From Corynebacterium sp. CNCTC7651 (GTDB taxonomy: Bacteria; Actinomycetota; Actinomycetes; Mycobacteriales; Mycobacteriaceae), in contig NZ_CP071246.1 of assembly GCF_021496665.1 (NCBI RefSeq), positions 1,364,001-1,428,000 of the forward strand: 64,000 nt of DNA, written 5' to 3'. How positions within the stretch are numbered: position 1 is the stretch's first letter; every line of letters begins with the position of its first letter. The notes below the pieces were generated by a model. The model had not been told where the DNA came from. It saw nothing but the letters and a program-made list of their open reading frames with translations, and did no database searches. Below, in pieces: positions 1,099-47,234 of this stretch. Made by a program: the position numbers and the translations under genes.

Positions 1099-1656
1099 TT
1101 ATCGGTTGGCATTTGTTCCATCTTGGTTCTGCACCGCGGTCAACGCCCCGCGCAGGGCCGCCTCCACCGCTGCGGCACGGATTGCGTTCCGGTCGCCGGC
1201 GAGGACTCGGACGGGCTCCGGGGAGCCGTCGATAAGCGTGAAGCGCCCGAGCGCGGTGGGGACGAGTTCTGCGGCCGCGGAGGACGCCGTCCAGTGCGGG
1301 CCGGCAAGCCCAATCCAGACCTCCCCCACCGGGTGCCCGTCCTGCGGATCCGGCCCCGCGACACCGGTCAGCGCCACCGCCCAGTCCGCCCCGCACGCCG
1401 CACGCGCACCGCGAGCCATCTCCCGGGCCACCGCAGGCGAGACTGGACCGCACTCTTCGAGCACATGCTTATCGACGTTCGCCAGCCCCACCTTCACGTC
1501 CGTCGCATACGTAATCAGCCCGCCGCGCAATACGTCGGAGGCGCCGGGGACGCTGGCGAGGGTGGCAGCAGCCAAGCCCGCGGTCAAAGACTCGCAAAAG
1601 GCGATGGTCTGCCCGTGGGCGCGGAGCTCATCAATCAGCGTGTTCGCGGTACTCAT
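1099..1656 (-). CDS. cinA: CinA C-terminal-type nicotinamide-nucleotide amidohydrolase
   Basis: The 185-residue protein corresponds to the stand-alone C-terminal CinA domain (PncC), which deamidates nicotinamide mononucleotide to nicotinate mononucleotide. Family motifs are visible: ESLTAGLAAATLASVPGAS near the N terminus, the GGLITYATDVK segment and VALTGVAGPDPQDGHPVGEVWIG. The N-terminal molybdopterin-like domain of long CinA is absent, which is normal in actinobacteria. Its ATG overlaps the stop of pgsA by 4 bp, indicating translational coupling. The gene holds two copies of the 11-mer GCTTATCGACG in opposite orientations. Confidence 0.88.
   Translation of the reverse strand: MSTANTLIDELRAHGQTIAFCESLTAGLAAATLASVPGASDVLRGGLITYATDVKVGLANVDKHVLEECGPVSPAVAREMARGARAACGADWAVALTGVAGPDPQDGHPVGEVWIGLAGPHWTASSAAAELVPTALGRFTLIDGSPEPVRVLAGDRNAIRAAAVEAALRGALTAVQNQDGTNANR
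1227..1237 (-). repeat. GCTTATCGACG oligomer, copy 1 (in cinA)
   Basis: This is an exact minus-strand copy of the over-represented 11-mer. On the coding strand it encodes Leu-Ile-Asp using the CTT leucine codon. Confidence 0.8.
1467..1477 (+). repeat. GCTTATCGACG oligomer, copy 2 (in cinA)
   Basis: This exact plus-strand copy is antisense to cinA, where it encodes Val-Asp-Lys. It is followed by TTCGCC and lies 230 bp from copy 1 in the opposite orientation. Confidence 0.8.
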
Positions 1657-2189
1657 TTGTTCACTTTCTCTGCGTCAACGAGGTACTGGATGCCGGTGAC
1701 CACGGTGACAGCCGCGGCGAGGATCATCACCACAAGCGTGGGGACGTCCATCCAGGCCGGCAGCGGGCAGAGGTACATGGCCACACCGACGGTCTGTAGG
1801 ACGGTCTTGAGCTTGCCGCCCTTCGACGCCGGGACAACCTTGCCCTGCCGCAGCATCCACATGCGCCAGAAAGTAATGCCCAGTTCGCGGATGATGATCA
1901 TCACGGTGATCCACACCGGCAAGGTGGAGGCGATGTTCAGGCTCACCAGCGCCGTAATCATCAGCGCCTTGTCCGCGATGGGGTCCGCGATCTTGCCAAA
2001 GTCGGTGACCAAGCCGCGCGAGCGGGCGATATCGCCGTCCAACTTGTCCGTAATCATCAGCGCGACGAAGAGGCCGAAGGCCCACCACCACTGCTGCGTA
2101 AGCACCAGCCAGGCAAAAACCGGGATGAAGATGATGCGCAGCGACGTGAGAATGTTGGGCAAGTTCCAATTGGACTGCTTCTGGGTCAC
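1653..2189 (-). CDS. pgsA: CDP-diacylglycerol-glycerol-3-phosphate 3-phosphatidyltransferase
   Basis: This membrane enzyme makes phosphatidylglycerophosphate from CDP-diacylglycerol and glycerol 3-phosphate. The complete CDP-alcohol phosphotransferase signature DG-x2-AR-x8-G-x3-D-x3-D is readable as DGDIARSRGLVTDFGKIADP followed by IAD. Hydrophobic segments surround it. I place the start at the GTG at 2189, ten nt after GGGAGG; a GTG at 2198 is in frame but abuts that Shine-Dalgarno sequence. The gene overlaps cinA by 4 bp. Actinobacteria carry several paralogs, so PgsA rather than a phosphatidylinositol synthase is likely but not certain. Confidence 0.85.
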   Translation of the reverse strand: MTQKQSNWNLPNILTSLRIIFIPVFAWLVLTQQWWWAFGLFVALMITDKLDGDIARSRGLVTDFGKIADPIADKALMITALVSLNIASTLPVWITVMIIIRELGITFWRMWMLRQGKVVPASKGGKLKTVLQTVGVAMYLCPLPAWMDVPTLVVMILAAAVTVVTGIQYLVDAEKVNK

Positions 2190-2241
2190 CTGTGTCACGC
2201 CTCCCAGAGTACAGAGCGCCCCCGTCGCGCCCGGACTGCCC

Positions 2242-2247
2242 TAGACT
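2242..2247 (+). promoter_or_regulatory. -10 element TAGACT, probable leaderless start of YciI gene
   Basis: TAGACT lies 8 nt before the ATG at 2256 and there is no Shine-Dalgarno sequence between them, so transcription probably starts at or next to the start codon. Confidence 0.5.
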
Positions 2248-3717: not shown

Positions 3718-3870
3718 GCCTCCGGTCAAGGGTGAGTAAACGACCGGAGGTCTCCCCCACCAGCTTCACGACGGCGGGCCGCCCCGACCGGGACCCACCA
3801 GATGCAGGTGCCGTGTTGACGATCGCGGGCGATTGCGGGGTACTCCCCTCCAACGGGTGGCAACTTTACC
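3718..3870 (-). promoter_or_regulatory. yybP-ykoY-type manganese riboswitch upstream of terC
   Basis: Read on the minus strand, the 5' leader contains the family landmarks in order: GGGGAGTA (3848-3841), GTCAACAC in the middle, and GGGGGAGACC (about 3758-3749). A P1 stem can form between TTGGAGG (3853-3847) and CCTCCGG (3750-3744). The same CCTCCGGTC (3750-3742) is perfectly complementary over 9 bp to GACCGGAGG (3726-3718), which holds the terC Shine-Dalgarno sequence. The two pairings exclude each other, so ligand-stabilised P1 would free the ribosome site: a translational ON switch. The boundaries are approximate. Confidence 0.83.
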
Positions 3871-4502: not shown

Positions 4503-7500
4503 CTAGAACGCTCCGCCGGTCGGGTTGTAGGTGGCCTGCACCGTCTTCGTGCCACCGTCGTCGTCGAGGTCTGAGTCTGAGCCGTCGAAAAGCGACGGCT
4601 CCTCGGTGGGTGCCTCTGCGGGGTCGGCGCCCTTGATCATCCACAGGATGGTGTCCAGCTCCTCGGGTTTGACCAGCACCTCGCGGGCCTTGGAGCCCTC
4701 GGAGGGGCCGACCACGCCGCGGGTCTCCATGAGGTCCATGAGGCGGCCGGCCTTGGCGAAGCCGATGCGCAGCTTGCGCTGCAGCATGGACGTGGAGCCG
4801 AGCTGCGAGGTGACAACAAGCTCGACGGCCTCGAGGAGGTCGTCCATGTCCTTGCCGATTTCCTCGTCGATCTGCTTCGCCTCGGCGGCCTTGTCCTCGG
4901 TGACGCCCTCGACGTACTCGGGCTCGGACTGGTTCTTGGCGGCCTCGACCACGGCCTGGATCTCTTCGTCCGTGACAAAGGCACCCTGCAGGCGCTGCGG
5001 CTTACCGGCGCCCTGCGGGATGAACAGGCCGTCGCCCATGCCGATCAACTTTTCTGCGCCGGCTTGGTCCAGGATCACGCGGGAGTCTGTCAGCGAGGAC
5101 GTTGCGAACGCGAGGCGGGACGGCACGTTGGTCTTGATCAGGCCGGTGACCACATCCACACTCGGGCGCTGCGTGGCCAGCACCAGGTGGATGCCGGCGG
5201 CGCGGGCCTTCTGTGTGATGCGGACGATGGAGTCCTCGATCTCCTTCGGCGCCGTCATCATCAGATCCGCCAGCTCATCCACCACGCACACGATGAACGG
5301 GTACGGGCGCATCTCCCGCTCCGATCCCGGGGGCGCCGTAAGTTCCCCGGAGCGCACCTTGCGGTTGAAGTCCTTGATGTGGCGCACGCGCGCGGACTTC
5401 ATGTCCATGTAGCGCTGCTCCATCTCCTCCACCAACCACTGCAGCGCGGCCGCCGCCTTCTTCGGCTGGGTGATGATCGGCGTGATCAGGTGCGGGATGC
5501 CCTCGTACGGCGTGAGCTCCACCATCTTCGGGTCCACCAGAATCAGGCGGACCTCCTCAGGCGTGGCGCGCGTGAGCAGGGAAATCAACATGGAGTTGAC
5601 AAACGCGGACTTACCGGAGCCGGTGGAACCGGCGACCAGCAAGTGCGGCATCTTCTGCACGCTCGCGGCGACGAAGTCGCCCTCGATGTCCTTGCCCAAG
5701 CCGATCAGCATCGGGTCCGCGTCCGCGGCCACCTTCGGCGCATCCAGCACGTCGCGCAGGCGCACCATCTCGCGGTCCTGATTCGGCACCTCAATACCCA
5801 CGGCAGACTTGCCCGGGATCGGGGTGAGCAGGCGCACATTATCAGTGGCCGCGGCGTACGCCAGGTTGGACTGCAGGTTCGTAATCTTGGAAACCTTCAC
5901 GCCCGGGCCCAGCTCAACCTCGTAGCGCGTCACTGTCGGGCCGCGCGAGAAGCCCGTCACCTGCGCATCCACGTGGAACTCCTCGAAGACATCCGTGATC
6001 GCCTCAATCATGCGATCGTTCGCCTCAGTCCGCGTCTTCGGCTTCGATCCCGCCACCAGCAGGTCCGTCGTAGGCAGCACGTAGTCGGAATTCCCCTGCG
6101 GCGTGCGCTTCACCGGTTTCGGTGCTTCCTCGCGCTTCTCCAGCTCAGATTTCGGGGTGCTGGCTGGCACCGCCGCGGCATCGATTCCGCTGCGCGCCAC
6201 GATGGCCTGGCGCATTGCCTCGCGCGAGGATTCCACGGCGTCGGGGGCTTCTGCTTGGCGACGTTCCCCCGAACCCTCTCCATGCTCTTCCCTCGGCAGC
6301 ACTGCCGTCTCTTCACGGGATGGCTTGCGGGCCGGACGGGTTTGGCGCGGCTGGCTCTGGGGAGCCGGTTCGCGTGCTGCAACTGGCTCACGCGGCACAA
6401 CCACGGTCGAGCCGGAATCCGGCTCATTGCCGGCAGCGTAAACGGTGGCAGAGTCCTCCGACTCCTCGATCTCGTCTGCCCAGTCGATCACTGTGTCCGC
6501 GTCGTCGCCGTCTGCGGGATAGTTATCCATCGGCGTGCGGCGGCGCGGACGGGTGGCGCGCTGCGGTTCGCGGCGGGTGGTTTCAGTGTTGCGGTCGGTG
6601 CTCTGGACAGCCTCGCGCGACTTCAGCTGCGGCGCAGGCCGCTCCGAGCGCGGTGCTGATGTGCGCTCGCGCCCCTCTGCGATCGCCTCGATATCTCGGT
6701 CGGCCCGGCTGTACTGGTCGGCGTCGGAGGAATCGTCGTCAAGCTCGGTGCCCTGACCCTCGCCCTTTTCCAGCAGCTGGGCGATGAGCGCGCGGAGGTA
6801 GTCGTACGCCTCACGCACGGTGATGCCGGTGGTTTTCAGCGCGCCGTAGACGATCACTAACGCCAACAGCGGCACAGCAACGTAGGGCGAGAATGCAGCG
6901 GAGAGCACTCCGCCGAACAGCGCGCCGATGGCGCCGCCCGCAACGCGGCGAGCCTCCCAGTCTGCCGGCGTGCCGGCGAAGACGTGCACCATGCCCAGCA
7001 TTGCAACGGCGATGATGCTCAGGCCAAGCGCGACGCGCCCGCGAACGGCCGCCGGCGTGCGCACGTTGAGCATGAGCGCAATAGCTACGCCAACCAGCAC
7101 CACGGGGAGGATGAGCGCGCCAGCGCCGATCACCCAGTGGCAGCCTTGCGCGATGGCGCGGCCGACGGGTCCGGCAACATCCATCCACACGGATGCACCG
7201 ATGATGGCAGCCAATCCGATAAGCACGAGCCCCCACGCATCAGCGTGAGTGTTCACTGGGGCGGGTTCTTGCTGCCCTTGCTGCTCCTCCTGCGCCATGC
7301 GGGGCTGCGCCTCCTCTCGGTTTCGGCGGCGCGGTCGCGGGGTGTCTTCATACGCTGCGTCATACCCCGCCTCGTATCCGCTTGCGTACGCCTGCTCTTC
7401 CTCGGGCTCGGGAGCGAAGGGGTCGAACGTGTCCTCCTCGTCCTCCCGTGCGTTGCGGCGGCGACCGCCACCAAAGCCGGAACCGATGTTGGACACTGTC

Positions 7501-13391: not shown

Positions 13392-14195
<804 letters not shown>

Positions 14196-14216: not shown

Positions 14217-14218
14217 CG

Positions 14219-14920
14219 ATGGTTATGGATATGCATGTGAAGCGAACGTCGAAAAGCAAAGCCTGCCTGGCGCTGGGTGCGGTGCTGACGCTGAGCCTGG
14301 CCGCCTGCGGGCAGAACGTGCAACCTGTGGCGGAGCCGAAGACCTTCACCAGCGCGGAGGCGGCCACCAGTGTGGTGACCACGACGGAGGCGGCACCGAC
14401 GGTGACGGAGACGGCGACTGTGGAAACAACAGTGGAGCCGGTGGATACGGAAGCCGCGCAGTCGGTGTTCACGACGGAGCCTGTGCGGGTGCAGTCCCAG
14501 GGAGCGCCGGAGCTGGTGATTCAGGACGTGCGCGCCGGCACCCATGATGGGTATGACCGCGTGGTGTTTGAATACTCCGGCCCGGGCAAGCCCGGGTTCA
14601 TCGCCGGCTACAACCCGGACCCGCGACAGCAGACCTCCGGCTACCCGCTCGAGGGCCTGAAAGGCAATGCGTTCCTCGAGGTCATGATTCAGGGCACGCC
14701 CATGATGATGATGTCTCAGCGCGAGGACTTGCTCGGTGTTGGCCCGGTACGTGTGGCTCCGGGCGGCGGGTTTGTCGGCGCGGGCAGCGTCCAGGGCGTG
14801 GTGCACGGCGGCGTGTTCGAGGCGGATACGCAGTACGTGATCGGCCTGGACAAGGTCCGTCCGTACAACATCTACGTCCTGGAGAACCCGACTCGTGTGG
14901 TCGTGGATTTCCAGCAGTAG
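14219..14920 (+). CDS. AMIN-like domain lipoprotein
   Basis: The product is a predicted lipoprotein with lipobox LSLAAC followed by a Thr/Val/Glu-rich flexible spacer (about residues 35-100). A C-terminal beta-rich domain (about 105-233, LVIQDVRAGTHDGYDRVVFEYSG ... NIYVLENPTRVVVDFQ) matches the AMIN-like fold found in actinobacterial exported proteins, where related AMIN domains bind envelope polymers. The start is uncertain: ATG codons at 14219, 14225 and 14231 and a GTG at 14237 are all in frame, no Shine-Dalgarno sequence is visible, and the TATAGT upstream suggests initiation near 14225-14237. Codons 11-14 include a T-variant of the repeated oligomer (14247-14257). Confidence 0.78.
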   Translation: MVMDMHVKRTSKSKACLALGAVLTLSLAACGQNVQPVAEPKTFTSAEAATSVVTTTEAAPTVTETATVETTVEPVDTEAAQSVFTTEPVRVQSQGAPELVIQDVRAGTHDGYDRVVFEYSGPGKPGFIAGYNPDPRQQTSGYPLEGLKGNAFLEVMIQGTPMMMMSQREDLLGVGPVRVAPGGGFVGAGSVQGVVHGGVFEADTQYVIGLDKVRPYNIYVLENPTRVVVDFQQ

Positions 14921-22642: not shown

Positions 22643-22653
22643 GCTTATCGACG
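22643..22653 (+). repeat. GCTTATCGACG oligomer, copy 4 (overlaps rpsO stop codon)
   Basis: On the rpsO strand the motif reads CGT-CGA-TAA-GC, supplying the last two arginine codons and the stop codon of the gene. Confidence 0.85.
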
Positions 22654-25026: not shown

Positions 25027-25920
25027 ATGACGGACCCCTTGGCATCTTCCGGAATCGTCGTTGTTGATAAGCCCGCGGGCATGACCAGCCATGACGTGGT
25101 GGCGAAACTGCGCCGCGCCTTCAACACCAGGAAGGTCGGCCACGCGGGCACTTTGGACCCGATGGCGACGGGCGTGCTGGTCGCAGGCATTGAGCGCGGA
25201 ACGAAGCTGCTGGCCCACCTGGTCGCAGACGACAAGACCTACAAGGCCACGATCCGCCTCGGCGCCTCCACCACCACGGACGACGCGGAGGGCGAGGTAC
25301 TCTCCACCGCGGACGCATCGCTTGTCACCGACGAGGCTATCCAGGCGATCGTCGATACGCTGACCGGCGACATCATGCAGAAGCCGGCGAGCGTGTCCGC
25401 CATCAAGATCGACGGCAAACGCGCCCACGAGCTGGTCCGCGAGGGCGCGGAGGTGGACATTCCCGCCCGCCCCGTCACCGTCCACAGCATCGACATCACG
25501 GACACGCGCCGGCACGGCAGCGTCATCGACCTCGACGTGCGCGTGCACTGCTCCTCCGGCACCTACATCCGCTCGCTCGCCCGCGACCTCGGGGCAGCGT
25601 TAGGCGTCGGAGGCCACTTAATTGCTTTACGACGACTCACTTCCGGCCACTTCACCATTGAGGACGCCGCCCCGCTGGGTGCGCTGCAGGATGAACCGAT
25701 CCTCTCGCTCACGATGGATGAGGCGCTGTCCCGCGCCTGGCCAGTCCTAGCTGTCACCCAGGATGAGTACGATGCGCTAGCCATGGGAAAATGGCTCGAG
25801 CCACGCGGGCTCACAGGCGTGCACGCCGCGCAAGGACCGGACGGGCGCGTCGTGGCCCTAGTGAAGGAGCAGGGCAAGCGCCTAGCGACCGTCTTCGTCG
25901 CCCGCCCGTCAACGCTTTAG
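25027..25920 (+). CDS. truB: tRNA pseudouridine(55) synthase
   Basis: The 297-residue enzyme converts U55 of the tRNA T-loop to pseudouridine. The catalytic-aspartate motif HAGTLDPMATGVL is intact, preceded by the GIVVVDKPAGMTSHDVV opening and followed by KTYKATIRLG and the SSGTYIRSLARDLG motif. A short C-terminal domain follows, as in actinobacterial TruB. It is the only plus-strand gene between rpsO and rimP and is divergent from ribF. It converges with the phosphopantetheinyl transferase gene. Confidence 0.95.
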   Translation: MTDPLASSGIVVVDKPAGMTSHDVVAKLRRAFNTRKVGHAGTLDPMATGVLVAGIERGTKLLAHLVADDKTYKATIRLGASTTTDDAEGEVLSTADASLVTDEAIQAIVDTLTGDIMQKPASVSAIKIDGKRAHELVREGAEVDIPARPVTVHSIDITDTRRHGSVIDLDVRVHCSSGTYIRSLARDLGAALGVGGHLIALRRLTSGHFTIEDAAPLGALQDEPILSLTMDEALSRAWPVLAVTQDEYDALAMGKWLEPRGLTGVHAAQGPDGRVVALVKEQGKRLATVFVARPSTL

Positions 25921-30203: not shown

Positions 30204-30224
30204 ACGTCGATAAGCAAAAGCCCA
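30204..30224 (-). repeat. 21-bp intergenic repeat with GCTTATCGACG (copy 5), identical to 14175-14195
   Basis: The inverse complement of this segment is identical over 21 bp to the sequence upstream of the lipoprotein gene at 14.2 kb. The core 11-mer is at 30205-30215. It lies between infB and rbfA. Confidence 0.85.
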
Positions 30225-30301: not shown

Positions 30302-30342
30302 GGGCTTCTTGCTTGACGACGGTTGCGTACCAGCCTAGCTGC

Positions 30343-34900: not shown

Positions 34901-35443
34901 TTACCTCTCACCGGCCTCAAGTTTCAAGGCCTCATCGAACGACAGTTCCGCCAGCTCAACCTCTGCGGCAGGCGGCTGGTTGAACTCAATGTCTACCACC
35001 GCAGCAGGCAAATCCGAAACTGCCCGCACGGCGACCTTCGGCGTTTTCGTGCCGGCTTCCACGAGGATGATCTCGCTTTCGTCGTCACGCAAGGCCCCGA
35101 TGCGCCACGCCTTGCCCTCGATGACGGCGAGGCGTCCGCGGTTGCGGCGCCAATGGCGCGGCTGGGTCAGCGGCAGGTCCACTCCCGGCGTAGTCACCTC
35201 GAGCGTGTAACCGGCGCCGAAGTTGAGCTTGCCGGCGTCCTCGGTGGCGTCGAAAAGCTCGCTAAGCTCCTGGCTCACCACCTCGAGTTCGTCGAGCGTG
35301 GGGCGGGTATCCGAGTCCAGCGCGACGATGACCTGCGATTTCTTGCCGGCCTTCACAGCGCGAACGTCCTCAACATCCATCCCGTGCGCGGTGGCGACGG
35401 GCTCGATGTACGCGCGGAGTTCTTCGGTTGAAGGAAATGCCAT
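34901..35443 (-). CDS. rimP: Ribosome maturation factor RimP
   Basis: The 180-residue protein is needed for 30S subunit maturation. It has the RimP N-terminal alpha/beta domain (VEDVRAVKAGKKSQVIVALDSD ... ELEVVSQELSELFD) and the GYTLEVTTPGVDLPLTQPRHWRRN motif, then a C-terminal SH3-like barrel. The ATG at 35443 is chosen over a long upstream extension that would run antisense through the lipoprotein gene. A T-variant of the 11-mer is at 35248-35258 (encoding ELFDAT). Confidence 0.93.
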   Translation of the reverse strand: MAFPSTEELRAYIEPVATAHGMDVEDVRAVKAGKKSQVIVALDSDTRPTLDELEVVSQELSELFDATEDAGKLNFGAGYTLEVTTPGVDLPLTQPRHWRRNRGRLAVIEGKAWRIGALRDDESEIILVEAGTKTPKVAVRAVSDLPAAVVDIEFNQPPAAEVELAELSFDEALKLEAGER

Positions 35444-35467: not shown

Positions 35468-35474
35468 TTTGCGC

Positions 35475-36275
35475 GTGAAGAAGCTGCTTGCCGTGCCCGT
35501 CGCCGCCCTCCTAGCGGTTGGGATGGCGGGCTGCACCGTGATGGATGTCGTGGGGCCGCGGCCGAACAAAGAGATCATGGCGCTGGCACGGCAGGCCACA
35601 GCGGACGCCGGCGAGGGCACGTACGGCGAGCTGCGGCGCTTCCACTCGCAGCAGCTTATCGACGAAGCTTTGAGACTCTGCGGCACCTCCCCCAACGGCG
35701 AAGTTCCCTCGAGCTGCGATGCTTCCTTGGATGGCGCGGAGCTGCCGGCGGCGGAATCGGTTTCTGCGCTTGTGGATTCCACTGTCGCGGCCGCTAACCG
35801 TGTGCCGGATGAGTCCGTGGACGTGGTGGTGGCGCAGGCGATTGACGCCGTCGCGCTGGACGAGGTTGACATGCAGGCGGTTGGTTTGTCGGGTATTGAG
35901 GCTGAGGCCGACGTAGCTGCCGCGCAGCAGCTGCTGTTTGCTGAGGACCAGCTGCGCTACGGGCTGACCTTTGCCTTGGCTTATGCGGACGAGGGGCTTC
36001 GCGAACGGATTCGAGCGCTGCTCGACGCATCACGGGAGCGCGTGGTGGCGCTGCAAGAGATCCTCCCGCCGGCGGCGGAGCCACTCGATGTGCCAGCCGC
36101 GTACGTTTTCCGAGAGCCGGACGTTGAGCCCGAAAATGCAGAAGAGGCCACGCGGCTGGTCGATGACCTGCAGCGTGGCCTAGTGGACCAGTGGCGGCTT
36201 AGCGCCGCCCAGGCCGAAAGTGATGTGTGGCGCCGGGACGCGATCTACTTTGCGGCCCACGCCCAGCGGGACTGA
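35475..36275 (+). CDS. Lipoprotein with ferritin-like DUF4439 domain
   Basis: The 266-residue product has a lipoprotein signal peptide (VKKLLAVPVAALLAVGMAGC). Its C-terminal half is an all-helical ferritin-like domain (AEADVAAAQQLLFAEDQLRYGLTFALAY ... RERVVALQEILPP ... QWRLSAAQAESDVWRRDAIYFA) of the DUF4439 family. Iron ligands typical of true ferritins are not obvious. The start is a GTG preceded by TAGCGT at 7 nt. It is divergent from rimP. Codons for QLIDEA contain an exact copy of the 11-mer at 35654-35664. Function is unknown. Confidence 0.82.
   Translation: MKKLLAVPVAALLAVGMAGCTVMDVVGPRPNKEIMALARQATADAGEGTYGELRRFHSQQLIDEALRLCGTSPNGEVPSSCDASLDGAELPAAESVSALVDSTVAAANRVPDESVDVVVAQAIDAVALDEVDMQAVGLSGIEAEADVAAAQQLLFAEDQLRYGLTFALAYADEGLRERIRALLDASRERVVALQEILPPAAEPLDVPAAYVFREPDVEPENAEEATRLVDDLQRGLVDQWRLSAAQAESDVWRRDAIYFAAHAQRD
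35654..35664 (+). repeat. GCTTATCGACG oligomer, copy 6 (in DUF4439 gene)
   Basis: This is an exact copy, read in the coding direction as Leu-Ile-Asp-Glu. Confidence 0.8.
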
Positions 36276-36518: not shown

Positions 36519-38318
36519 CTACCCCGCGAGCGGGGCGGTCTCCTTACGCACCAGCTCGAGCACCTGGTCCACAATGCGATCGGCCGGAACCTCAAGGGTC
36601 TCGCCGCCGCGAATGCGCAGCTCAACAATGCCGTCGGCGAAGCTGCGGCCCAGGATCACCAGGAACGGCATGCCCAGAAGCTCGGCGTCCTTGAATTTGA
36701 CTCCGGGCGAGACCTTAGGGCGATCGTCGAAAAGCACTTCGAGCCCGGCGGAGTCGAACTCGGCGACCAGCCGCTCGCCGGCCTCGAGCGCGGCGGCATC
36801 CTTGTTCGCCACGGCAACGTGCACCTGGTACGGCGCGATGGCGACGGGCCAGACCAGGCCCTTGTCGTCGTGGCGCTGCTCGGCCACGACCGCCATCATG
36901 CGGGAGACGCCAATGCCGTAGGAACCCATGGTGGGCACGGCGCGCTTGCCGTTCTCGTCCAAGATCTGCACGTCCATGGCCTCGGTGTACTTGCGGCCGA
37001 GCTGGAAGATGTGGCCCATCTCAATGCCGCGTGCGAGCTCCAGAGTGCCGTTGCCGGACGGGGACGGGTCGCCCTCCTTGATCTCGGCGGCCTCCACGAA
37101 GCCGTCGACGGTGAAGTCGCGCCCAGCAACAAGGCCGACGACGTGCTTCTGCGGGGCATCGGCCCCCGTGATCCAGCTGGTGCCGTCCACCACGCGCGGG
37201 TCCGCGAGCACACGGACACCGTTTGCGGCCAGCGCGCGCGGGCCGACGTAGCCCTTGACCAGGAAGCCAGACTTGGCAAAGTCCTCCTCGCTGGCAAGCT
37301 CAAACGTGGCCGGCTCGAGGGAGGCTTCGAGGCGCTTCTCGTCCAGCTCGCGGTCGCCCGGAATGAGCACGCCAACAAGCTGCGGGCCCACCGGCTCGCC
37401 CTCTTCGGTCACCGCGCGCGGGTCGTCCACCTTGATCACCATGCACTTGAGGGTGTCGGCGGCGGTGACCTCGCGATCGTCGATACGCACGCCCGCCCCG
37501 TTCGCCCAGTCCACCAGCGCGGCGATGGTCTCGGATGCCGGGGTGTCGCGCTCCACCGGCTCGGGCAGCCCCTCGATCGAGCGCGCCGGCGGCACGACCG
37601 TGGTCACGGCCTCCACGTTCGCCGCGAAGTCGCCTGCGGTGGAGACCACAAAGGTGTCCTCACCGTTTTCGGAGTACGCAAGGAATTCTTCGGACGCGGA
37701 GCCGCCCATCGCACCGGAGGTGGCCTTGCAGATCTCGTACTTCAGCCCCACGCGGTCAAACACACGCTGGTACGCGGCGCGGTGCTTGGCGTAGGACTCC
37801 GCCAGCCCCTCATCCGTCATGTCGAAGGAGTAGCTGTCCTTCATCACAAACTCGCGGCCGCGCAAGATGCCCGCACGCGGACGTGCCTCATCGCGGTACT
37901 TGGTCTGGATCTGGTACAGCGTCACCGGGAAGTCCTTGTAGGAGCTGTACAGGTCTTTCACCTGCTGGGTGAACATCTCCTCGTGCGTCGGGCCCAGCAG
38001 CATGTCCGCGCCCTTGCGGTCCTTCAGGCGGAACAGATCATCGCCGTACTCGGACCAGCGGTTCGTCGCCTCATACGGCTCGCGGGGCAAAAGCGCCGGG
38101 AACAGCAGCTCCTGGGCGCCCATCGCGTCCATTTCCTCGCGCACAATGCCCTCGATCTTGCGCAGCGTGCGCAGGCCAAGCGGCAGCCAGGAGTACACGC
38201 CTGGGGCGGCGCGGCGCACGTAGCCGGCGCGCACGAGCAGCTTGTGGCTGGGCACCTCCGCGTCGGCAGGATCTTCGCGCAACGTGCGCAGGAATAGCTC
38301 TGACAGGCGTGTGATCAT
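36519..38318 (-). CDS. proS: Prolyl-tRNA synthetase
   Basis: The 599-residue class II synthetase is the bacterial type with an editing (INS) insertion. Motif 2 region [23 protein letters not shown] and motif 3 [12 protein letters not shown] are clear, and the opening [21 protein letters not shown] with [23 protein letters not shown] is standard. The editing domain lies about between residues 225 and 400. The ATG at 38318 fits the family; a longer upstream reading would overlap the divergent yaaA. A T-variant of the 11-mer is at 36725-36735. Confidence 0.96.
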
Positions 38319-38336
38319 GAACGCAAATCCTACCGT

Positions 38337-38342: not shown

Positions 38343-38349
38343 TTTTGCC

Positions 38350-39105
38350 ATGCTGATCGTGCTCCCACCTTCCGAAACCAAAGCTCCCGGCGGCGAGCCG
38401 GACGGCATCGATTGCTCCTTCCCTACCCTTGACCCCATCCGGGCCACGCTTATCGACGCTCTTTCGAACACCCCAATCGACACCATGATGGCCGAGCTGA
38501 AAATCCCGGCCGGCAAGCGCACGGAGGCCGAGGAGAACCTGCAGCTGCGCACCGCGCCCGTTATGCCGGCGATTCACCGCTACACCGGGGTGCTCTACGA
38601 CGCGCTCGACGCTGGTTCGCTTTCCGACGACGCATTGCACCACCTCGCCGTCGGATCCGCCCTGTTCGGTCTTGTGCGTGCGAATGACATGATTCCGCGT
38701 TACCGCCTTTCCGGCGGGTCGAAGTTGGGTGGACGGACGATGCGTGCCTGGTGGGGGACATCGGTTAGCCAGGCGTTGGCCACTGCCGCCGAGGAGCACG
38801 GCCTCATCCTGGACCTGCGCTCCGGCGCGTACCAGCAGCTCGGCCCGGTGCCGGCCGGCGTGCCGTGTGTGACCGTGCGGGTGGAAAACGTGCTCGCGGA
38901 CGGCACTCGCAAGGTGGTCAGCCACTTTAACAAGCACTACAAGGGCGAACTGGCGCGGGACATGGCGCTCTTGGCCGCCCGCGAAGGCGGCACACCGGGG
39001 ATTCGTGATGCTGACGAGCTCGCCGATGCGGCTTCCGAGGCCGGCTTCGACGTGGAGGTGCGTGGCGACGAACTCACGCTCCTAGTCGGCGGCTCCCGGG
39101 AGTGA
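38350..39105 (+). CDS. yaaA: YaaA/UPF0246 (DUF328) peroxide-stress protein
   Basis: The 251-residue protein matches the YaaA family, in which the E. coli member limits free iron during hydrogen peroxide stress and binds DNA. The N-terminal LPPSETK motif and the segment [13 protein letters not shown] are typical, as are [22 protein letters not shown] and [26 protein letters not shown]. It starts 32 bp from the divergent proS start and appears leaderless. An exact copy of the 11-mer lies at 38448-38458 within codons for LID. Confidence 0.9.
38448..38458 (+). repeat. GCTTATCGACG oligomer, copy 7 (in yaaA)
   Basis: This is an exact copy, read in the coding direction as Leu-Ile-Asp. Confidence 0.8.
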
Positions 39106-42611: not shown

Positions 42612-43729
42612 CAGTCCTCCTTCAGCGGCAGGGTGGCGGCCAGTACGTTGCCCTCCACGGTGAGGGTGCCGCCGATCTCTTCAACGCGGGCGCGCAAGCC
42701 TTTCAGGCCGAACCCCTCGGGGCCGGTGATGCCGCGGCCGTTGTCGAAGACATCGACAGTCGCTTCGTCGCCCAGCCTATCCACCGTCACCACGGCAAGC
42801 GACGCTCCGGCGTGGCGCACGACGTTGCTGAGGCTCTCGCGCACCACGCGCTCCGCCACAGAGGCCGCGGGTTCCGGCAGGTCAACGGCGTTGACGCGCA
42901 CCTCAAGCGGAGAACCGAGCGCGCGCTGGCGGGCTTCGGCGGCGCGCGCGAGCCGTTCGATCCGTGCCGTCAGCGGCTCCCCGGCACCTGCGGCGTTGCC
43001 GGCGACGAAGCGGCGCGCCTCCGCAAGATTGTCGGCTGCGACTTCCCGGATGGTACTGAGGGTCTCGCGGGCTGGCTGTGCGCCGTCGATAAGCGAAAGC
43101 TCCTTGTCCAGCGCGCGGCCGAGGAGCACGATGGAGCTCAGTCCCTGCGCCATGGTGTCGTGCACCTCGCGGGAGAGGCGCGTGCGTTCCTCGGCCACGC
43201 CGGCGGCGTGCTCGGCGGCGGACAGGTCGCGTTGAGCGGCCTCGAGATCCGCGGCAACCTTGCGGTAATGCTCCGCATCCGCCCGCAGCGCCTGGTAGGC
43301 GTGGACAATGCCGATCGCCATGATGGAGCCAATCGTGGGGCCAATCAATCCGCCCATGCCGTTCGCAGGCACGGTCACGCTCAAGGTGTAGGCCAGAAGC
43401 CCGGCGGTGACCGCAATCCCCCACCTAGCGGGGAGCACGAAACAGGCGACCATGACCAGCGGAAACTCCAACCACACAAAGCTGGGAGACAGCGCCGCCA
43501 GCACCACCCACAGCAAAATCACCACAGTTAACCACAGCGCCGCCTGCGCTTGCGTGTATGAATACCCGCGGTTCTGGTGCACGGTGCCGAAGAGATACGC
43601 GGCGGCGAACGCGGCTGCCGCCGCAACCGTGGACCAGTGCTGCGCACCGACAAGCCCCACGAGCAGCAGCACAGCGACGAGGACGTGCACGCTCACGCGC
43701 AGGGTGGCCATGATGCGGTGTGTGGTCAT
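42611..43729 (-). CDS. HisKA_3 (DesK/NarX-type) sensor histidine kinase
   Basis: The product of about 372 residues has five to six N-terminal membrane segments and no large extracellular domain. A coiled-coil linker (YRKVAADLEAAQRDLSAAEHAAG) leads to the HisKA_3 phospho-acceptor in RLSREVHDTMAQGL (about residue 185), then an ATPase domain (RESLSNVVRHAGAS ... DNGRGI ... GFGLKGLRARVEEIGG). Membrane-only sensing kinases next to ABC transporters often detect antimicrobial or lipid perturbation through the membrane. The start is set at the first ATG, since a GTG 84 bp further upstream lies beyond the palindrome and lacks support. An exact 11-mer copy is at 43084-43094. Confidence 0.9.
   Translation of the reverse strand: MTTHRIMATLRVSVHVLVAVLLLVGLVGAQHWSTVAAAAAFAAAYLFGTVHQNRGYSYTQAQAALWLTVVILLWVVLAALSPSFVWLEFPLVMVACFVLPARWGIAVTAGLLAYTLSVTVPANGMGGLIGPTIGSIMAIGIVHAYQALRADAEHYRKVAADLEAAQRDLSAAEHAAGVAEERTRLSREVHDTMAQGLSSIVLLGRALDKELSLIDGAQPARETLSTIREVAADNLAEARRFVAGNAAGAGEPLTARIERLARAAEARQRALGSPLEVRVNAVDLPEPAASVAERVVRESLSNVVRHAGASLAVVTVDRLGDEATVDVFDNGRGITGPEGFGLKGLRARVEEIGGTLTVEGNVLAATLPLKED
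43084..43094 (-). repeat. GCTTATCGACG oligomer, copy 8 (in histidine kinase gene)
   Basis: This is an exact copy, read in the coding direction as Leu-Ile-Asp-Gly. Confidence 0.8.
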
Positions 43730-43780
43730 GAGCGCCACCCTAGCCCCACTCGGACTCCTGCCCCACCTGGTTTCCCCGTA

Positions 43781-43798
43781 ATCAACCGATCGGTTGAT
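43781..43798. promoter_or_regulatory. 18-bp perfect palindrome between kinase and ABC transporter genes
   Basis: ATCAACCGATCGGTTGAT is a perfect palindrome in the divergent promoter region of about 130 bp. Its form (two 9-bp half sites without spacer) resembles TetR-family operators more than NarL-type sites, but it could be the response regulator's site. Confidence 0.6.
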
Positions 43799-43857
43799 CA
43801 GTTTCTCAACCACCTTCCCGATGTGACAACACGCAGGTCAAGGCCACAATTGGGGCC

Positions 43858-44838
43858 ATGTTCGTTGGTATTCGTGAAATCAAGAAGGCGAAGGGGCGCT
43901 TCGGGCTGATTGTGGGCACCGTCGCGCTGATCACCCTTCTGGTTGTTGTCCTGACCGGTCTCACGTCGGGACTTGGCAAGCAAAACACTTCCGCGCTGGA
44001 GGCGCTCGCACCCGAGGCTGTCGTGTTCGACGACCCGGCCGAGCCGTCCTTCACCACCTCCCGCGTCGACGCGCAGCCAGGCATGGTGCCGCTGGGCACC
44101 GGCCAGACGCTCATGCAGGGCGCAAGCGGCGAAGAAGAGTCCGTGGGCATCCTCAGCCTCCCGGCAGGCACCGAACTGCCCGGGGGCCAGGTGCTTGCCG
44201 ACGGCGCCGTGGCCTCCAGCTCCCTCGGCTTAAGCGCCGGCGAAACCATCCGCCTCGGCGGCACCGAAACCGTCGTGGACGCAATCGCGGATGACCTGCA
44301 GTACTCTCATACCCCGGTGGTATGGGTGCCTACCGATATCTGGCAGCAGGCGTTCCACACTGATGCGGACGGCACCGTCCTCTTGTCCGACGACCCGAAC
44401 GCCGCCGGCGGCGTCACTCTCAAGGAATCTTTCCAGGGTCTGCCGGCGTACGCGTCCGAGCAGGGGTCCCTGATGATGATCCAGGGCTTCCTCTACGCCA
44501 TCGCGGCACTGGTCATCATCGCCTTCCTCAGCGTGTGGACGATGCAGCGCACCCGCGTCCTGGCCATCCTCAAGGCCATCGGCGCATCCAACAAGTACCT
44601 GCTCAAGGATGCCCTCGGCCAGTCCGCAATCCTGCTCGCCATCGGTGTGACCGTTGGCGGACTGGCAGCCCTTGGCATCGGCATGACCATGGCCGGCGTG
44701 GCACCGTTCACCCTCTCCGCCCCCGTCATCGCCGCTCCCCCGGCCGCAGTGTGGGTGCTCGGCATGGCCGGCGCACTCATTGCCACCCGCTCCATCACCA
44801 AAGTCAACCCGCAAAGCGCACTCGGAGGTGTCGCATAA
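43858..44838 (+). CDS. ABC transporter permease, FtsX/MacB type
   Basis: The 326-residue protein has one N-terminal membrane segment, a large extracytoplasmic domain (about 40-205), and three C-terminal membrane segments in an FtsX-like domain (ALVIIAFLSVWTMQRTRVLAILKAIGASNKYLLKDALGQSAIL). This architecture belongs to type VII ABC systems that work on envelope substrates by mechanotransmission rather than classical transport. Its TAA stop overlaps the ATG of the ATPase gene by one base. Divergence from a two-component system suggests stimulus-dependent expression. Confidence 0.9.
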   Translation: MFVGIREIKKAKGRFGLIVGTVALITLLVVVLTGLTSGLGKQNTSALEALAPEAVVFDDPAEPSFTTSRVDAQPGMVPLGTGQTLMQGASGEEESVGILSLPAGTELPGGQVLADGAVASSSLGLSAGETIRLGGTETVVDAIADDLQYSHTPVVWVPTDIWQQAFHTDADGTVLLSDDPNAAGGVTLKESFQGLPAYASEQGSLMMIQGFLYAIAALVIIAFLSVWTMQRTRVLAILKAIGASNKYLLKDALGQSAILLAIGVTVGGLAALGIGMTMAGVAPFTLSAPVIAAPPAAVWVLGMAGALIATRSITKVNPQSALGGVA

Positions 44839-45485
44839 TGCTTGAACTCAACAACGTCACCGTGACCTTCCAAGACGGCCAGGAGCGCCGCACCGTACTG
44901 GACAACCTCAACTTCACCGCCGAGCGCGGCCAGCTGACCTTCATCGTCGGCGAGTCTGGCTCCGGCAAGTCCACCCTCCTCTCCGTCGCCGCAGGTCTAA
45001 TCACCCCGGACTCCGGCACCGCTACGCTGAACGGCCGCGTGGTCAACGACCAGGTCCGCCGCGACCACATGGGCATGATCTTCCAGCAGGCCAACCTCAT
45101 CACCGCCCTCAACGTTCGCGACCAGCTGCTGGTCACCGACCACTTGCGAGGCGTGAAGCCACGCAAGGACAGGGCTGAAGAGCTGCTCGCCGCCGTGGGC
45201 CTCGAGGGCCTGGGCGACCGCGACATGAAAGCGCTTTCCGGCGGCCAGCGTCAGCGCGTGGGCATCGCCCGCGCCCTCATGGGCTCCCCGGAGCTTGTGC
45301 TTGCCGACGAACCCACCGCTGCCCTCGATGCTTCCCGCTCCCGCGAGATCGTCGACCTCCTGCGCAAGCTGGTGGAAGAGCACGACGTGGCCTGCGGCTT
45401 TGTCACCCACGATCGCTCCCTCATCGCCGAGCACGACCGCGTCTTCGAGATGGGCGAGCACGCACCCGTCCCCGCCCTGGTTTAG
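44838..45485 (+). CDS. ABC transporter ATP-binding protein, LolD/MacB type
   Basis: The 215-residue ATPase has Walker A GESGSGKST, Q-loop IFQQANLI, signature LSGGQRQRVGIARAL, Walker B LVLADEPTAALD and the H-loop in VTHDRSL. It pairs with the permease just upstream (TAATG overlap). LolD/MacB/FtsE-type ATPases energise such permeases. The gene ends at a 15-bp tandem duplication shared with the converging methyltransferase gene. Confidence 0.93.
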   Translation: MLELNNVTVTFQDGQERRTVLDNLNFTAERGQLTFIVGESGSGKSTLLSVAAGLITPDSGTATLNGRVVNDQVRRDHMGMIFQQANLITALNVRDQLLVTDHLRGVKPRKDRAEELLAAVGLEGLGDRDMKALSGGQRQRVGIARALMGSPELVLADEPTAALDASRSREIVDLLRKLVEEHDVACGFVTHDRSLIAEHDRVFEMGEHAPVPALV

Positions 45486-45512
45486 CCAGCTCGCAGCTAG
45501 CCAGCTCGCAGC
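45483..45512. repeat. 15-bp perfect tandem duplication at the junction of two converging genes
   Basis: TAGCCAGCTCGCAGC occurs twice head to tail (45483-45497 and 45498-45512). The first copy starts with the stop codon of the ABC ATPase, and the methyltransferase stop codon spans the copy boundary. Confidence 0.9.
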
Positions 45513-46492
45513 ACGGTAAAGGTGGCATCGCGGCTGACTTGTTCAACCGTCGCAAAGCGCCGCTCCACCTCACCGCGGTAGCGCAAGTGCGAATTGTGCA
45601 CCAGGTACAGCTGCCCGCCGGGGGCAAGCAACCGCTTCGCGGCATCCAGCAGGTGTTGCACCAGCGTCGCATCCACCGCTGTTCCGTCGTGGAACGGCGG
45701 ATTGAGCGCTATCGTGTCGAAACTTCCTGCGGGGTAGCGCGACCCGGCGTCGTCCCACGTCGCGTCCAGCCCAATGGCCCTCGCGGAGAGCACAGCGTCC
45801 GCGTCCGAGTCTGTGGCGCTCACCGAGTCCGCGGCCCCTGCAAGACCACGCGAAACGCTGCCGTTGCCGCAGCCGAGATCGAGAAACCTGCCCAAACCAC
45901 TATCCGGCAGCGCTGAGCGCAGCAGTTCGCCGCCGCGGTCCGGCTTCGCCCCGGAAAACACGCCGCCCACAGCCACTAGGCCGTTGGCCCGGCGCGGTTG
46001 GTAACTCACCTGTTTTGGCCCAGAGGCAACCAGGCAGCGGAACTTCCCCCGGCCGCGGGACGCGGAAACTTCCTCGAACGCCTCGCCCAAGACCTCATTC
46101 ATCGAGCGTGCCAGGTGCTTGTTGTTGCCGCCGAGGACTACCTGCGCCTCTGCATATCCCGCCCCCGCGATCGCTGCCGCCACGTATTCCAGGCGCGCGA
46201 GGGATTTCGGTGCCCTCCCGATGGCGAGCGCGGTTCCACTCTCTCCTGCCAGCGCCGCGTCCAAACGGGTATCCCCAACGATGCGCGCGCCGAGCGCCGC
46301 GGCATGCCGGCACCGTGTGTAGTCCGCATCGCAGAACACCACATCCGCGCCAGTGGCTAGTGCTGCGCGCACAAGATCGCCCGACGGATCCTCCGTCACC
46401 ACAATGGTGCCTGGAGCTGCTGCACCCGCGCCCGCGCCGTCCCCGGGGTGCAGCCCGGCCACGTCCACAATCAGCTGATCAACCGCGAGCAT
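45497..46492 (-). CDS. Class I SAM methyltransferase, RsmC/RlmG-like
   Basis: The 331-residue protein has the two-domain RsmC/RlmG layout: a degenerate N-terminal methyltransferase-like half and a catalytic C-terminal half with FLDLGCGNGSVSRGLAG (SAM binding) and ALNPPFHDGTAVD (NPPF catalytic motif). The family methylates guanine N2 in 16S or 23S rRNA; which position is modified here is not certain. It overlaps the upstream cobA gene by 14 bp. Its last codons and stop are duplicated in the 15-bp tandem repeat. Confidence 0.88.
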   Translation of the reverse strand: MLAVDQLIVDVAGLHPGDGAGAGAAAPGTIVVTEDPSGDLVRAALATGADVVFCDADYTRCRHAAALGARIVGDTRLDAALAGESGTALAIGRAPKSLARLEYVAAAIAGAGYAEAQVVLGGNNKHLARSMNEVLGEAFEEVSASRGRGKFRCLVASGPKQVSYQPRRANGLVAVGGVFSGAKPDRGGELLRSALPDSGLGRFLDLGCGNGSVSRGLAGAADSVSATDSDADAVLSARAIGLDATWDDAGSRYPAGSFDTIALNPPFHDGTAVDATLVQHLLDAAKRLLAPGGQLYLVHNSHLRYRGEVERRFATVEQVSRDATFTVLRAG

Positions 46493-47234
46493 GCGCAGCC
46501 ACCTCCCCGATCACGTAGACGGCCGGGTTGGTGATGCCGGCGCGTTCCATCTCGTCCGCCAGGGTGGCAACCGTGCCGGCCACTGCCCGCTGCTTGGCGG
46601 TCTCCCCGTCCTGGATTGCTGTGGCGGGGGTGGTTGGGTCCAAGCCTTCGTCGATAAGCGTGCGCGTGATGGCGCCCACGTTTTTCACCCCCATCACCAC
46701 GATGATGGTGCCGCCGAGGCGGCCGAGCGCGGCCCAGTCCACCAGGGATTTGGCGTGCCCGGGCGGGAGGTGGCCGGAGACCACGGTGAAGCAGTGGTTG
46801 ACGCCGCGCTGCGTCACCGGCACCCCTACCGCGGACGGCACCGAGATTGCGCTGGTGACACCGGGGACGACGGTGCAGGGCACGCCGGCAGCGGCGCAGG
46901 CAACGTACTCCTCAAATCCGCGGCCGAAGACGTGCGGGTCCCCGCCTTTGAGCCGCGCAACGCGCTTGCCAGCCAGCGCATGCTGCACCAGAAGCTCATT
47001 GATGCGCTCCTGCGCCACCTGTTTGCCGTACGGCAGTTTGGCAACGTCGATGATCACCTTGCCGTCCAGATCCACGAACTGGGCGAGCTGGTCCGCGGGT
47101 CCCAGGTGGTCCGTCAGGATTACGTCCGCCGCCTCCAGCGCGCGCAGCCCCCGGATGGTCAGCAGATCCCATTCTCCGGGACCGCCGCCAACCAGCGTGA
47201 CGTGCCCGGTTTCTGAAGCGCTGACTGTCTGCAT
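46479..47234 (-). CDS. cobA: Uroporphyrinogen-III C-methyltransferase
   Basis: The 251-residue enzyme makes precorrin-2 for siroheme or cobalamin. Signature segments are LVGGGPGEWDLLTIRGLRAL, the P2 region RLKGGDPHVFGRGFEE and AGVPCTVVPGVTSAISVP. It is a stand-alone methyltransferase without the dehydrogenase/chelatase half of CysG. The ATG at 47234 follows a TAGACT box at 8 nt, indicating a leaderless mRNA; the GTG at 47240 is also in frame. It diverges from selO with only 25 bp between start codons. An exact 11-mer copy is at 46649-46659. Confidence 0.92.
   Translation of the reverse strand: MQTVSASETGHVTLVGGGPGEWDLLTIRGLRALEAADVILTDHLGPADQLAQFVDLDGKVIIDVAKLPYGKQVAQERINELLVQHALAGKRVARLKGGDPHVFGRGFEEYVACAAAGVPCTVVPGVTSAISVPSAVGVPVTQRGVNHCFTVVSGHLPPGHAKSLVDWAALGRLGGTIIVVMGVKNVGAITRTLIDEGLDPTTPATAIQDGETAKQRAVAGTVATLADEMERAGITNPAVYVIGEVAAHARG
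46649..46659 (-). repeat. GCTTATCGACG oligomer, copy 9 (in cobA)
   Basis: This is an exact copy, read in the coding direction as Leu-Ile-Asp-Glu. Confidence 0.8.

What the first reader, a model, noticed from the sequence alone, without database searches (positions are those of the whole stretch)
1227..46659. The 11-mer GCTTATCGACG is massively over-represented: a candidate DNA-uptake-like or genome-wide binding sequence
Exact copies are at 1227-1237(-), 1467-1477(+), 14184-14194(+), 22643-22653(+), 30205-30215(-), 35654-35664(+), 38448-38458(+), 43084-43094(-) and 46649-46659(-). With about 60% GC, roughly 0.03 copies are expected on both strands of 64 kb, so nine is a several-hundred-fold excess. 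Copies occur in both orientations relative to the genome and to genes, encoding LID one way and VDK the other, and also between genes; this rules out one protein motif as the cause. The in-gene copies use the CTT leucine codon, otherwise uncommon here. Lack of strand polarity argues against Chi- or KOPS-like roles. The pattern resembles uptake signal sequences of Neisseria and Pasteurellaceae; I know of none described for Corynebacterium.
Basis: partly seen in the sequence, partly recalled or inferred. Interest (0 to 1): 0.85.

Follow-up and report, generated by a model that had tools for sequence, protein, structure and literature searches.

The report
Genome-wide DNA uptake-like word in Corynebacterium
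Most Corynebacterium species sampled carry hundreds to thousands of copies of one short DNA word, in clade-specific spellings and nearly absent from their plasmid-like DNA, which looks like a 'self' label for natural DNA uptake of the kind described in two families of Gram-negative bacteria.

Summary
GCTTATCGACG occurs 9 times in the window (shuffle expectation 0.02) and 344 times in the 2.45-Mb genome (reversed control 0). It is one spelling of a spaced word, GCTTNNCGACG: 1418 copies (control 70), on both strands, without replication polarity, within and between genes. Permuting synonymous codons leaves about 22 of 249 coding copies. Of 242 genomes of the genus, 165 hold at least 20 exact copies; of the other 77, 21 exceed five times control for this word or a second spelling, GCTTNNCGATG, one has another word, CGCGRCGTCAT, five are doubtful and 50 show neither spelling. 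In 18 genomes sampled the spellings hardly mix. 185 genomes of 30 sister genera stay near control (at most 2.6-fold). Eighteen plasmid-like contigs have 0 exact copies against 29 expected. Tad pilus, ComEC and DprA genes are in nearly every Corynebacterium genome, with or without the word. Best reading: an uptake-sequence system like DUS/USS, evolved independently in an actinobacterium. Not shown: uptake, the receptor, or an excess of inverted pairs. My searches of open-licence papers listed no earlier report.

The parts
1227..1237 (-). exact word GCTTATCGACG, inside ORF 1099-1656(-) (approximate gene call)
1467..1477 (+). exact word GCTTATCGACG, opposite strand to ORF 1099-1656(-) (approximate gene call)
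3763..3773 (+). spaced form GCTTCACGACG
4583..4593 (-). spaced form GCTTTTCGACG
6253..6263 (+). spaced form GCTTGGCGACG
6734..6744 (-). spaced form GCTTGACGACG
14184..14194 (+). exact word, outside called genes; left arm of an inverted pair with 14247
14247..14257 (-). spaced form GCTTTTCGACG; right arm of the inverted pair (63 bp apart, so outside the 60-bp tally); window 14176-14265 folds at -37.1 kcal/mol, z -4.93
22643..22653 (+). exact word, outside called genes, upstream of the PNPase-type gene 20166-22505(-)
24499..24509 (-). spaced form GCTTGGCGACG
25624..25634 (+). spaced form GCTTTACGACG
30205..30215 (-). exact word inside the RbfA-family ORF 29725-30273(-)
30311..30321 (+). spaced form GCTTGACGACG
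35248..35258 (-). spaced form GCTTTTCGACG
35654..35664 (+). exact word, in the N-terminal part of ORF 34901-35872(-), ahead of its RimP_N domain (may be intergenic if the true start is later)
36725..36735 (-). spaced form GCTTTTCGACG
38448..38458 (+). exact word inside ORF 38242-39105(+), YaaA family
38619..38629 (+). spaced form GCTTTCCGACG
43084..43094 (-). exact word inside a histidine kinase ORF 42611-43813(-)
44193..44203 (+). spaced form GCTTGCCGACG
45299..45309 (+). spaced form GCTTGCCGACG
45548..45558 (-). spaced form GCTTTGCGACG
46649..46659 (-). exact word inside ORF 46479-47240(-), tetrapyrrole methylase family
47865..47875 (+). spaced form GCTTGCCGACG
51938..51948 (+). spaced form GCTTGACGACG
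54207..54217 (-). spaced form GCTTTTCGACG
56901..56911 (-). spaced form GCTTGTCGACG
61391..61401 (+). spaced form GCTTGCCGACG
63560..63570 (+). spaced form GCTTTACGACG

Best explanation
GCTTNNCGACG is the uptake (self-recognition) sequence of a natural transformation system in Corynebacterium. Shown: a strict 4-N2-5 word at about 580 copies per Mb of this genome, its clade-specific spellings, its near absence from plasmid-like contigs, its sharing at orthologous positions, and a genus-wide gene set of Tad/Flp pilus, ComEC and DprA with ComEA beside ComEC in the loci looked at. Inferred: a surface DNA receptor (a Tad pilus subunit or the helix-hairpin-helix protein ComEA) binds the word, so DNA of the same clade is taken up preferentially through ComEC and recombined with help of DprA/RecA. 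Over time this drives the word into permissive sites of exchanged chromosomal DNA, while plasmids and phages, spread by other means, do not gather it. A change in receptor specificity would change the spelling, giving the ACG and ATG dialects and perhaps the unrelated word of G012.
For: Enrichment: 1418 copies vs 70 reversed control; exact word 344 vs 0. Strictness: single changes in GC, T4 or CGACG are nearly absent (0-4 copies each), NN is free, T3 tolerates G. Not codon-driven. No replication polarity: 96+/85- in one chromosome half, 71+/74- in the other, while GC skew flips. Genus: 165 of 242 genomes with at least 20 exact copies; 21 of the other 77 above 5 times control of GCTTNNCGAYG; 185 genomes of 30 other genera at most 2.6 times control. 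Dialects: of the 18 ACG or ATG genomes sampled with 20 kb each, 15 have 0 copies of the other spelling and three have 1-2; G012 has 684 CGCGNNGTCAT vs 21 reversed. Plasmid-like contigs: 0 exact vs about 29 expected in 18 readable contigs of 12 genomes, about 332 kb read. Orthologous sites shared across clades, some with the dialect letter swapped. Machinery: ComEC 241 of 242, TadA 239 of 242, DprA 242 of 242, Flp DUF4244 238 of 242, TadE-like 241 of 242, ComEA in the 35 ComEC-side loci looked at, one only as a fragment. A Tad/Flp pilus with comEA/comEC drives transformation in the actinobacterium Micrococcus luteus (PMC6370729, passages).
Against: No uptake or transformation data. 50 of 242 genomes lack both spellings although nearly all genomes keep the machinery genes, so gene presence does not predict the word. 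Close pairs within 60 bp are not in excess in ACG genomes: 8 observed vs 10.5 expected in the own genome, 6 vs 7.9 and 5 vs 5.1 in two other sets; the ATG set has 5 vs 2.6, all same-strand, unlike USS/DUS. Columns that separate the dialects are few in Flp and TadE-like (one each), five in TadE and nine in ComEA, and all are confounded by kinship. Plasmid depletion could also reflect recent arrival from hosts without the word. One orthologous site carries ATG in two ACG genomes (G009, G217).
Confidence: 0.75

Rival explanations
1. The word is the binding site of a chromosome-organising, replication or repair protein that needs many spread sites (nucleoid protein, segregation factor or Chi-like recombination signal).
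For: Wide spread and strict specificity fit a DNA-binding protein. Plasmids would not need the sites.
Against: No strand polarity by chromosome half, against Chi- or KOPS-like use. No concentration in one part of the chromosome among the sampled 20-kb stretches, 8-25 copies each (stretches partly chosen near known copies). Spellings differ wholesale between clades and 50 of 242 genomes lack both, odd for an essential chromosome function. I know of no Corynebacterium protein with this site (recall).
Confidence: 0.12
2. The word is a codon-pair, translation or mutation-bias by-product, for instance of a repair or modification system that favours CTT ATC GAC and similar runs.
For: About half of the spaced copies lie in one frame on the coding strand: 151 of 326.
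Against: Synonymous permutation within genes removes most of the coding copies, 249 to 22. Copies occur in all six phase/strand combinations and outside called genes. A mutation bias should also act on resident plasmids and does not explain a free NN between two strict blocks.
Confidence: 0.03
3. The word is a DNA-modification or restriction target (methyltransferase site) under positive selection, without a role in uptake.
For: A strict bipartite site looks like some bipartite methylation sites (recall).
Against: Restriction targets are usually avoided (recall), not enriched about 20-fold over the reversed control. A 2-base spacer is unlike Type I sites (recall). Spellings clustered on a gene tree do not fit the fast turnover of restriction-modification systems.
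Confidence: 0.05
4. The word mainly serves transcription termination as inverted pairs, with single copies as relics.
For: Several inverted pairs fold stably: L026 z -5.75, L025 z -6.07, window 14176-14265 z -4.93. Close pairs in the three ACG sets are mostly inverted, 17 vs 2 same-strand.
Against: Close pairs in the ACG sets are not in excess of random placement, the ATG set gave 0 inverted and 5 same-strand pairs, and most copies are single and within called genes.
Confidence: 0.02

Closest known systems
DNA uptake sequence (DUS) of Neisseriaceae and its dialects (PMC3630211, abstract and passages read; receptor ComP as told in PMC6370729, passages)
   Same: Short word, hundreds to thousands of copies, both strands, inside and between genes, several spellings differing by few bases, spellings following phylogeny.
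   Different: Unrelated sequence (Neisseria DUS GCCGTCTGAA); free 2-base spacer; actinobacterium with a Tad/Flp pilus instead of a type IV pilus with ComP; inverted pairs not in excess; uptake not shown.
Uptake signal sequence (USS) of Pasteurellaceae (PMC12616744, passages read)
   Same: Copy number like that of H. influenzae (about 1300 AAGTGCGGT copies, PMC5217627 passage), two dialects, receptor only predicted (a minor pilin).
   Different: Unrelated sequence and phylum; terminator use not established here.
Tad/Flp-pilus transformation system of Micrococcus luteus (PMC6370729, passages read)
   Same: Actinobacterial Flp/Tad pilus with comEA and comEC; the same kinds of genes are found here.
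   Different: The passages I read report no uptake sequence for it.
Chi and KOPS sites (recalled)
   Same: Many copies of a short word over the chromosome.
   Different: Those are polarised relative to replication (recall); this word is not.

Membership tests
DUS/USS-type uptake sequence | Short (about 9-12 nt) motif enriched to hundreds or thousands of copies | tested here: met
   1418 vs 70 reversed control; 344 vs 0 for the exact 11-mer
DUS/USS-type uptake sequence | Both strands, no polarity, genic and intergenic | tested here: met
   (gene calls approximate)
DUS/USS-type uptake sequence | Dialects that follow phylogeny and keep an inner core | tested here: met
   ACG/ATG spellings share GCTTNNCGA; labels clustered on one gene tree (DECH helicase, 28 rows), 6 changes vs 14.3 shuffled. 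The G012 word shares no core with them
DUS/USS-type uptake sequence | Sits in exchanged core DNA, rare in mobile elements | tested here: met
   18 readable plasmid-like contigs: 0 exact vs about 29 expected, 15 spaced vs 4 reversed; 20 kb of each of two phages: 0 (whether their hosts carry the word was not tested); prophages, islands and a core-gene map not tested
DUS/USS-type uptake sequence | Frequent inverted pairs acting as terminators | tested here: not met
   pairs not in excess of random placement in the ACG sets, none inverted in the ATG set; single examples fold well
DUS/USS-type uptake sequence | Host encodes a transformation machine | tested here: met
   gene level only
DUS/USS-type uptake sequence | Motif raises DNA binding, uptake or transformation | not testable with these tools
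   needs an experiment
DUS/USS-type uptake sequence | Identified sequence-specific receptor (minor pilin) | tested here: inconclusive
   Flp, TadE, TadE-like and ComEA alignments by dialect: separating columns exist but cannot be told from kinship
Neisseriaceae DUS or Pasteurellaceae USS by descent | Same motif sequence, vertical relation | tested here: not met
   motif unlike GCCGTCTGAA and AAGTGCGGT; near control in 30 sister genera
Chi-/KOPS-like oriented site | Strand bias switching at origin and terminus | tested here: not met
   96+/85- and 71+/74- in the two halves while GC skew flips sign

The most novel reading that the evidence does not exclude
Corynebacterium has an independently evolved, genus-wide self-DNA code for natural transformation: a bipartite 4-N2-5 word in at least two dialects plus one unrelated word, read by a Tad/Flp pilus subunit or by ComEA. 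As far as I found, that would be a third origin of uptake sequences and the first in a Gram-positive phylum. Dialect changes would act as barriers to gene exchange between species, and the many natural dialect and motif-less species would allow the receptor to be found by co-variation.
Probability: 0.7. Interest if true: 0.93.

Novelty: new variant of a known kind. Interest (0 to 1): 0.86.

Why it matters
[quoted passage not shown] A third, independent case in actinobacteria would show that sequence-gated bacterial sex evolved outside Proteobacteria. It would suggest that natural transformation is active in Corynebacterium, a genus of commensals, pathogens and industrial strains. It predicts which species can exchange DNA, and gives a simple handle (add the word to donor DNA) for testing transformation in harmless strains.

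Tried and rejected
Codon or protein-motif cause: rejected by synonymous shuffles and by use of all phases. Chi/KOPS: rejected by lack of polarity. RNA element: no Rfam match at gathering score in the window. Presence or absence of competence genes as the switch: rejected, since ComEC, TadA, DprA, Flp and TadE-like genes are nearly universal. TadA scores are weaker (E above 1e-126, or no match) in 31 of the 50 genomes without either spelling and in 10 of the 186 with one (my hand reading), but this is confounded by phylogeny and by draft assemblies. Dialect determinants: TadE has an Asp at alignment column 70 in all ATG and no ACG rows; nine ComEA columns separate the dialects, three of them (305, 328, 337) in the HhH region; but the helicase tree allows a single ATG origin, so this is no evidence of causation. 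Inverted-pair excess: not found. Other words in motif-less genomes: G043, G114, G140 and G206 gave nothing I could tell from composition, G132 gave a repeat array, G007 and G121 weak candidates. The G012 word is not wholly clean: G231 has 101 copies against 3 reversed, and several GC-rich genomes have more copies than reversed control, so the reversed control is a soft null for that pattern. Literature: searches listed no report of an uptake sequence or of this word in Corynebacterium. Only open-licence PMC papers are held, and two listings were capped (20 of 69 papers, 15 of 105).
Full report
OBSERVATION. Shuffles expect 0.02. In the window GCTTATCGACG and its complement are the commonest 11-mers; an order-4 Markov model expects 0.10, and GCTTNNCGACG has 29 copies against 1.7 expected. 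The window lies in a single 2,453,109-base contig with 163 forward and 181 reverse exact copies and none of the reversed pattern.

THE UNIT. In 464 kb of the own genome (window and twenty stretches), de novo 11-mer counting puts GCTTATCGACG first (89 against 0.24 in an order-3 model). Substitution analysis shows a spaced word: changes in G1, C2, T4 or the block CGACG are nearly absent (0-4 copies each), T3 may be G (12 copies against 0.58), and the two middle bases are free, with AT, TA, TT and GA the most enriched. The consensus is GCTTNNCGACG, preceded mostly by C or T; the second base after it is never G in the 89 copies. The genome has 1418 copies against 70 reversed. The stretches were chosen partly near known copies, so their density is biased upward; whole-genome counts are not.

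NOT A CODON EFFECT. With a GC3-based gene caller, coding copies fall from 78 exact and 262 spaced to means of 2.45 and 17.6 when synonymous codons are redrawn (20 repeats, maxima 5 and 23). With a second caller and permutation within each gene they fall from 76 and 249 to 4.2 and 22.15 (20 repeats, maxima 7 and 30). All six phase/strand combinations occur for the spaced word; 74 of 326 copies lie outside called genes, and uncalled sequence makes up 16.9% of the total (59 of 326 with the first caller). Both callers are approximate; 2 of 11 check genes were missed.

DISTRIBUTION. No strand polarity: 96+/85- in the first half of the chromosome and 71+/74- in the second, while GC skew changes sign from +0.020 to -0.024. 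The sampled 20-kb stretches have 8 to 25 copies. Close pairs (up to 60 bp) are not in excess in ACG genomes: 8 against 10.5 expected in the own genome, 6 against 7.9 and 5 against 5.1 in two other sets; 17 of those 19 are inverted. The ATG set has 5 against 2.6, all on the same strand. Single inverted pairs fold strongly, including window 14176-14265, whose copies are 63 bp apart, so terminators made from the word exist as candidates, but this is not a genome-wide rule.

GENUS-WIDE PICTURE. Of 242 genomes of the genus, 165 have at least 20 exact copies, up to 782 in G199, with a reversed control of at most 6 (tallied by hand). The other 77 have 15 or fewer. For GCTTNNCGAYG, 21 of those 77 exceed five times their reversed control (for example G001 1118 vs 78, G070 1949 vs 121, G237 1973 vs 101), 5 lie at about 3-5 times (G028, G032, G157, G185, G231), and the other 51 are at 2.7 times or less. 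In 20-kb samples of 18 ACG or ATG genomes the spellings hardly mix: the ten ACG genomes have 5-19 ACG and 0-2 ATG copies, the eight ATG genomes 5-13 ATG and 0 ACG copies. One of the 51, G012, has its own word CGCGRCGTCAT, again 4-2-5 in layout: 342 forward + 342 reverse copies of CGCGNNGTCAT against 21 reversed. In the other 55 genomes of that search the pattern has at most 101 copies; G231, with 101 against 3 reversed, has a like ratio, and the reversed control is soft for GC-rich genomes. So 186 genomes have the word in one spelling, 5 are doubtful, 1 has another word, 50 show neither spelling. Named genomes: Corynebacterium urinipleomorphum 1189 vs 90 and Corynebacterium sp. MSK041 1040 vs 73 have it, as do three Corynebacterium MAGs (642 vs 38, 741 vs 68, 1924 vs 137); C. 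variabile 143 vs 92, a C. urealyticum MAG 108 vs 78, Rhodococcus aetherivorans 267 vs 341 and Tsukamurella asaccharolytica 234 vs 185 do not. Outside the genus, 185 genomes of 30 genera are at most 2.6 times control for GCTTNNCGACG.

SELF VERSUS MOBILE DNA. Twenty stretches of small contigs from 14 genomes with the exact word were read, at most the first 20 kb of each. Leaving out a 471-kb contig (3 exact and 13 spaced copies) and one unreadable stretch, 18 stretches (about 332 kb, from contigs of 4 to 145 kb in 12 genomes) have 0 exact copies against about 29 expected at the density of their own genomes, and 15 copies of GCTTNNCGAYG against 4 reversed; eight chromosomal 20-kb stretches counted beside them, mostly of other motif-bearing genomes, have 8-20 each. 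That these contigs are plasmids is inferred from size. The first 20 kb of two Corynebacterium phages have none, with a reversed count of 0 too; whether their hosts carry the word was not tested.

CONSERVATION IN PLACE. In genes of the Tad region aligned across up to 27 genomes, copies recur at the same codons in different clades. In a 973-aa gene beside the Tad locus (topoisomerase I by recall of gene order, not searched) one position is shared by eight ACG genomes, and another carries ACG in G002, G153 and G188 but ATG in G165, G209 and G027. In the helicase gene one position carries ATG in eight ATG genomes but also in two ACG genomes, G009 and G217. Sharing among close relatives is expected by descent alone; no formal null was run.

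MACHINERY. The own genome has a Tad/Flp locus at about 89-96 kb (L091): TadZ/Ssd-like protein, TadA ATPase, two T2SSF-type matches, a DUF4244 Flp-like pilin, a weak TadE match, an Rv3654c-type TadE-like protein and the neighbouring DECH helicase. A ComEA gene (SLBB + HhH) lies next to ComEC. In 242 genomes ComEC is in 241, TadA in 239, DprA in 242, DUF4244 in 238, TadE-like in 241; ComEA was seen in the 35 loci looked at, in one only as a fragment. These genes are present with and without the word, so they make uptake possible but do not predict it. A Tad/Flp pilus with comEA and comEC is the transformation system of Micrococcus luteus, another actinobacterium (PMC6370729, passages).

RECEPTOR. 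Alignments of Flp, TadE and TadE-like (26 genomes, TadE in 25) and ComEA (35 genomes) by dialect give some separating columns but none that can be told from kinship. A helicase tree of 28 rows puts ACG in deep and shallow branches (G070 next to the Rhodococcus outgroup, both on long branches) and allows one origin of ATG. ComEA of several motif-less genomes, as extracted, lacks the conserved N-terminal stretch, but so does that of G070, which has 1949 copies.

MECHANISM. The best-supported reading is an uptake sequence. Shown: enrichment, strictness, spellings, avoidance of plasmid-like contigs, and machinery genes. Inferred: specific binding, preferential uptake, and accumulation by recombination. 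The main rivals are a chromosome-wide binding protein, a modification site, and codon or mutation bias; the last is largely excluded.

COMPARISON. The pattern matches Neisseriaceae DUS (dialects, thousands of copies; PMC3630211, abstract and passages) and Pasteurellaceae USS in kind, not in sequence. A 2025 paper calls those two families the only ones known to do this (PMC12616744, passage). My searches of the held open-licence papers (listings capped) listed no such report for Corynebacterium or for this word. PMC5217627 (passages) searched genomes for spaced 5-mer pairs and lists CRISPR-related pairs for three Corynebacterium genomes.

LIMITS. Nothing here measures DNA uptake. Phylogeny was not controlled in the gene-content comparison, and only one gene tree was built.

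Noticed in passing
G012 (L081, L108-L111): A 2.0-Mb Corynebacterium genome with its own abundant word CGCGRCGTCAT (684 copies of CGCGNNGTCAT vs 21 reversed), unrelated to GCTTNNCGACG.
   Followed up: partly
G231 (L231, L244): CGCGNNGTCAT 101 vs 3 reversed and GCTTNNCGAYG 172 vs 55: a doubtful genome that may have a word of its own.
   Followed up: no
G121 (L061-L064): GCGGCGTCC is over-represented (49 vs 9.3 expected in 80 kb); possibly another abundant word. TTGTCCACA also gives 9 copies vs 0.19 (DnaA-box-like by recall).
   Followed up: no
G007 (L053-L056): GTGGCGTCG is mildly over-represented (12 vs 1.6 in 80 kb) in a genome without the Corynebacterium word.
   Followed up: no
G132 (L079, L096-L099): Repeat array with about 20 copies of a GC-rich unit containing ACCTCCGCGTG and GCGCGGAG-type words; CRISPR-like by look only.
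   Followed up: no
G207 (L243): ComEA reading frame appears broken or very divergent in a genome without the word; described only.
   Followed up: no
genus-wide: Genomes without the word often have a lower-scoring TadA (31 of 50 weak or missing, against 10 of 186 with the word, several of them draft assemblies); may be phylogeny.
   Followed up: partly
G001 (L049-L052): Palindrome CCTGCAGG is over-represented (22 vs 5.8 in 80 kb, both strands counted, so 11 places).
   Followed up: no
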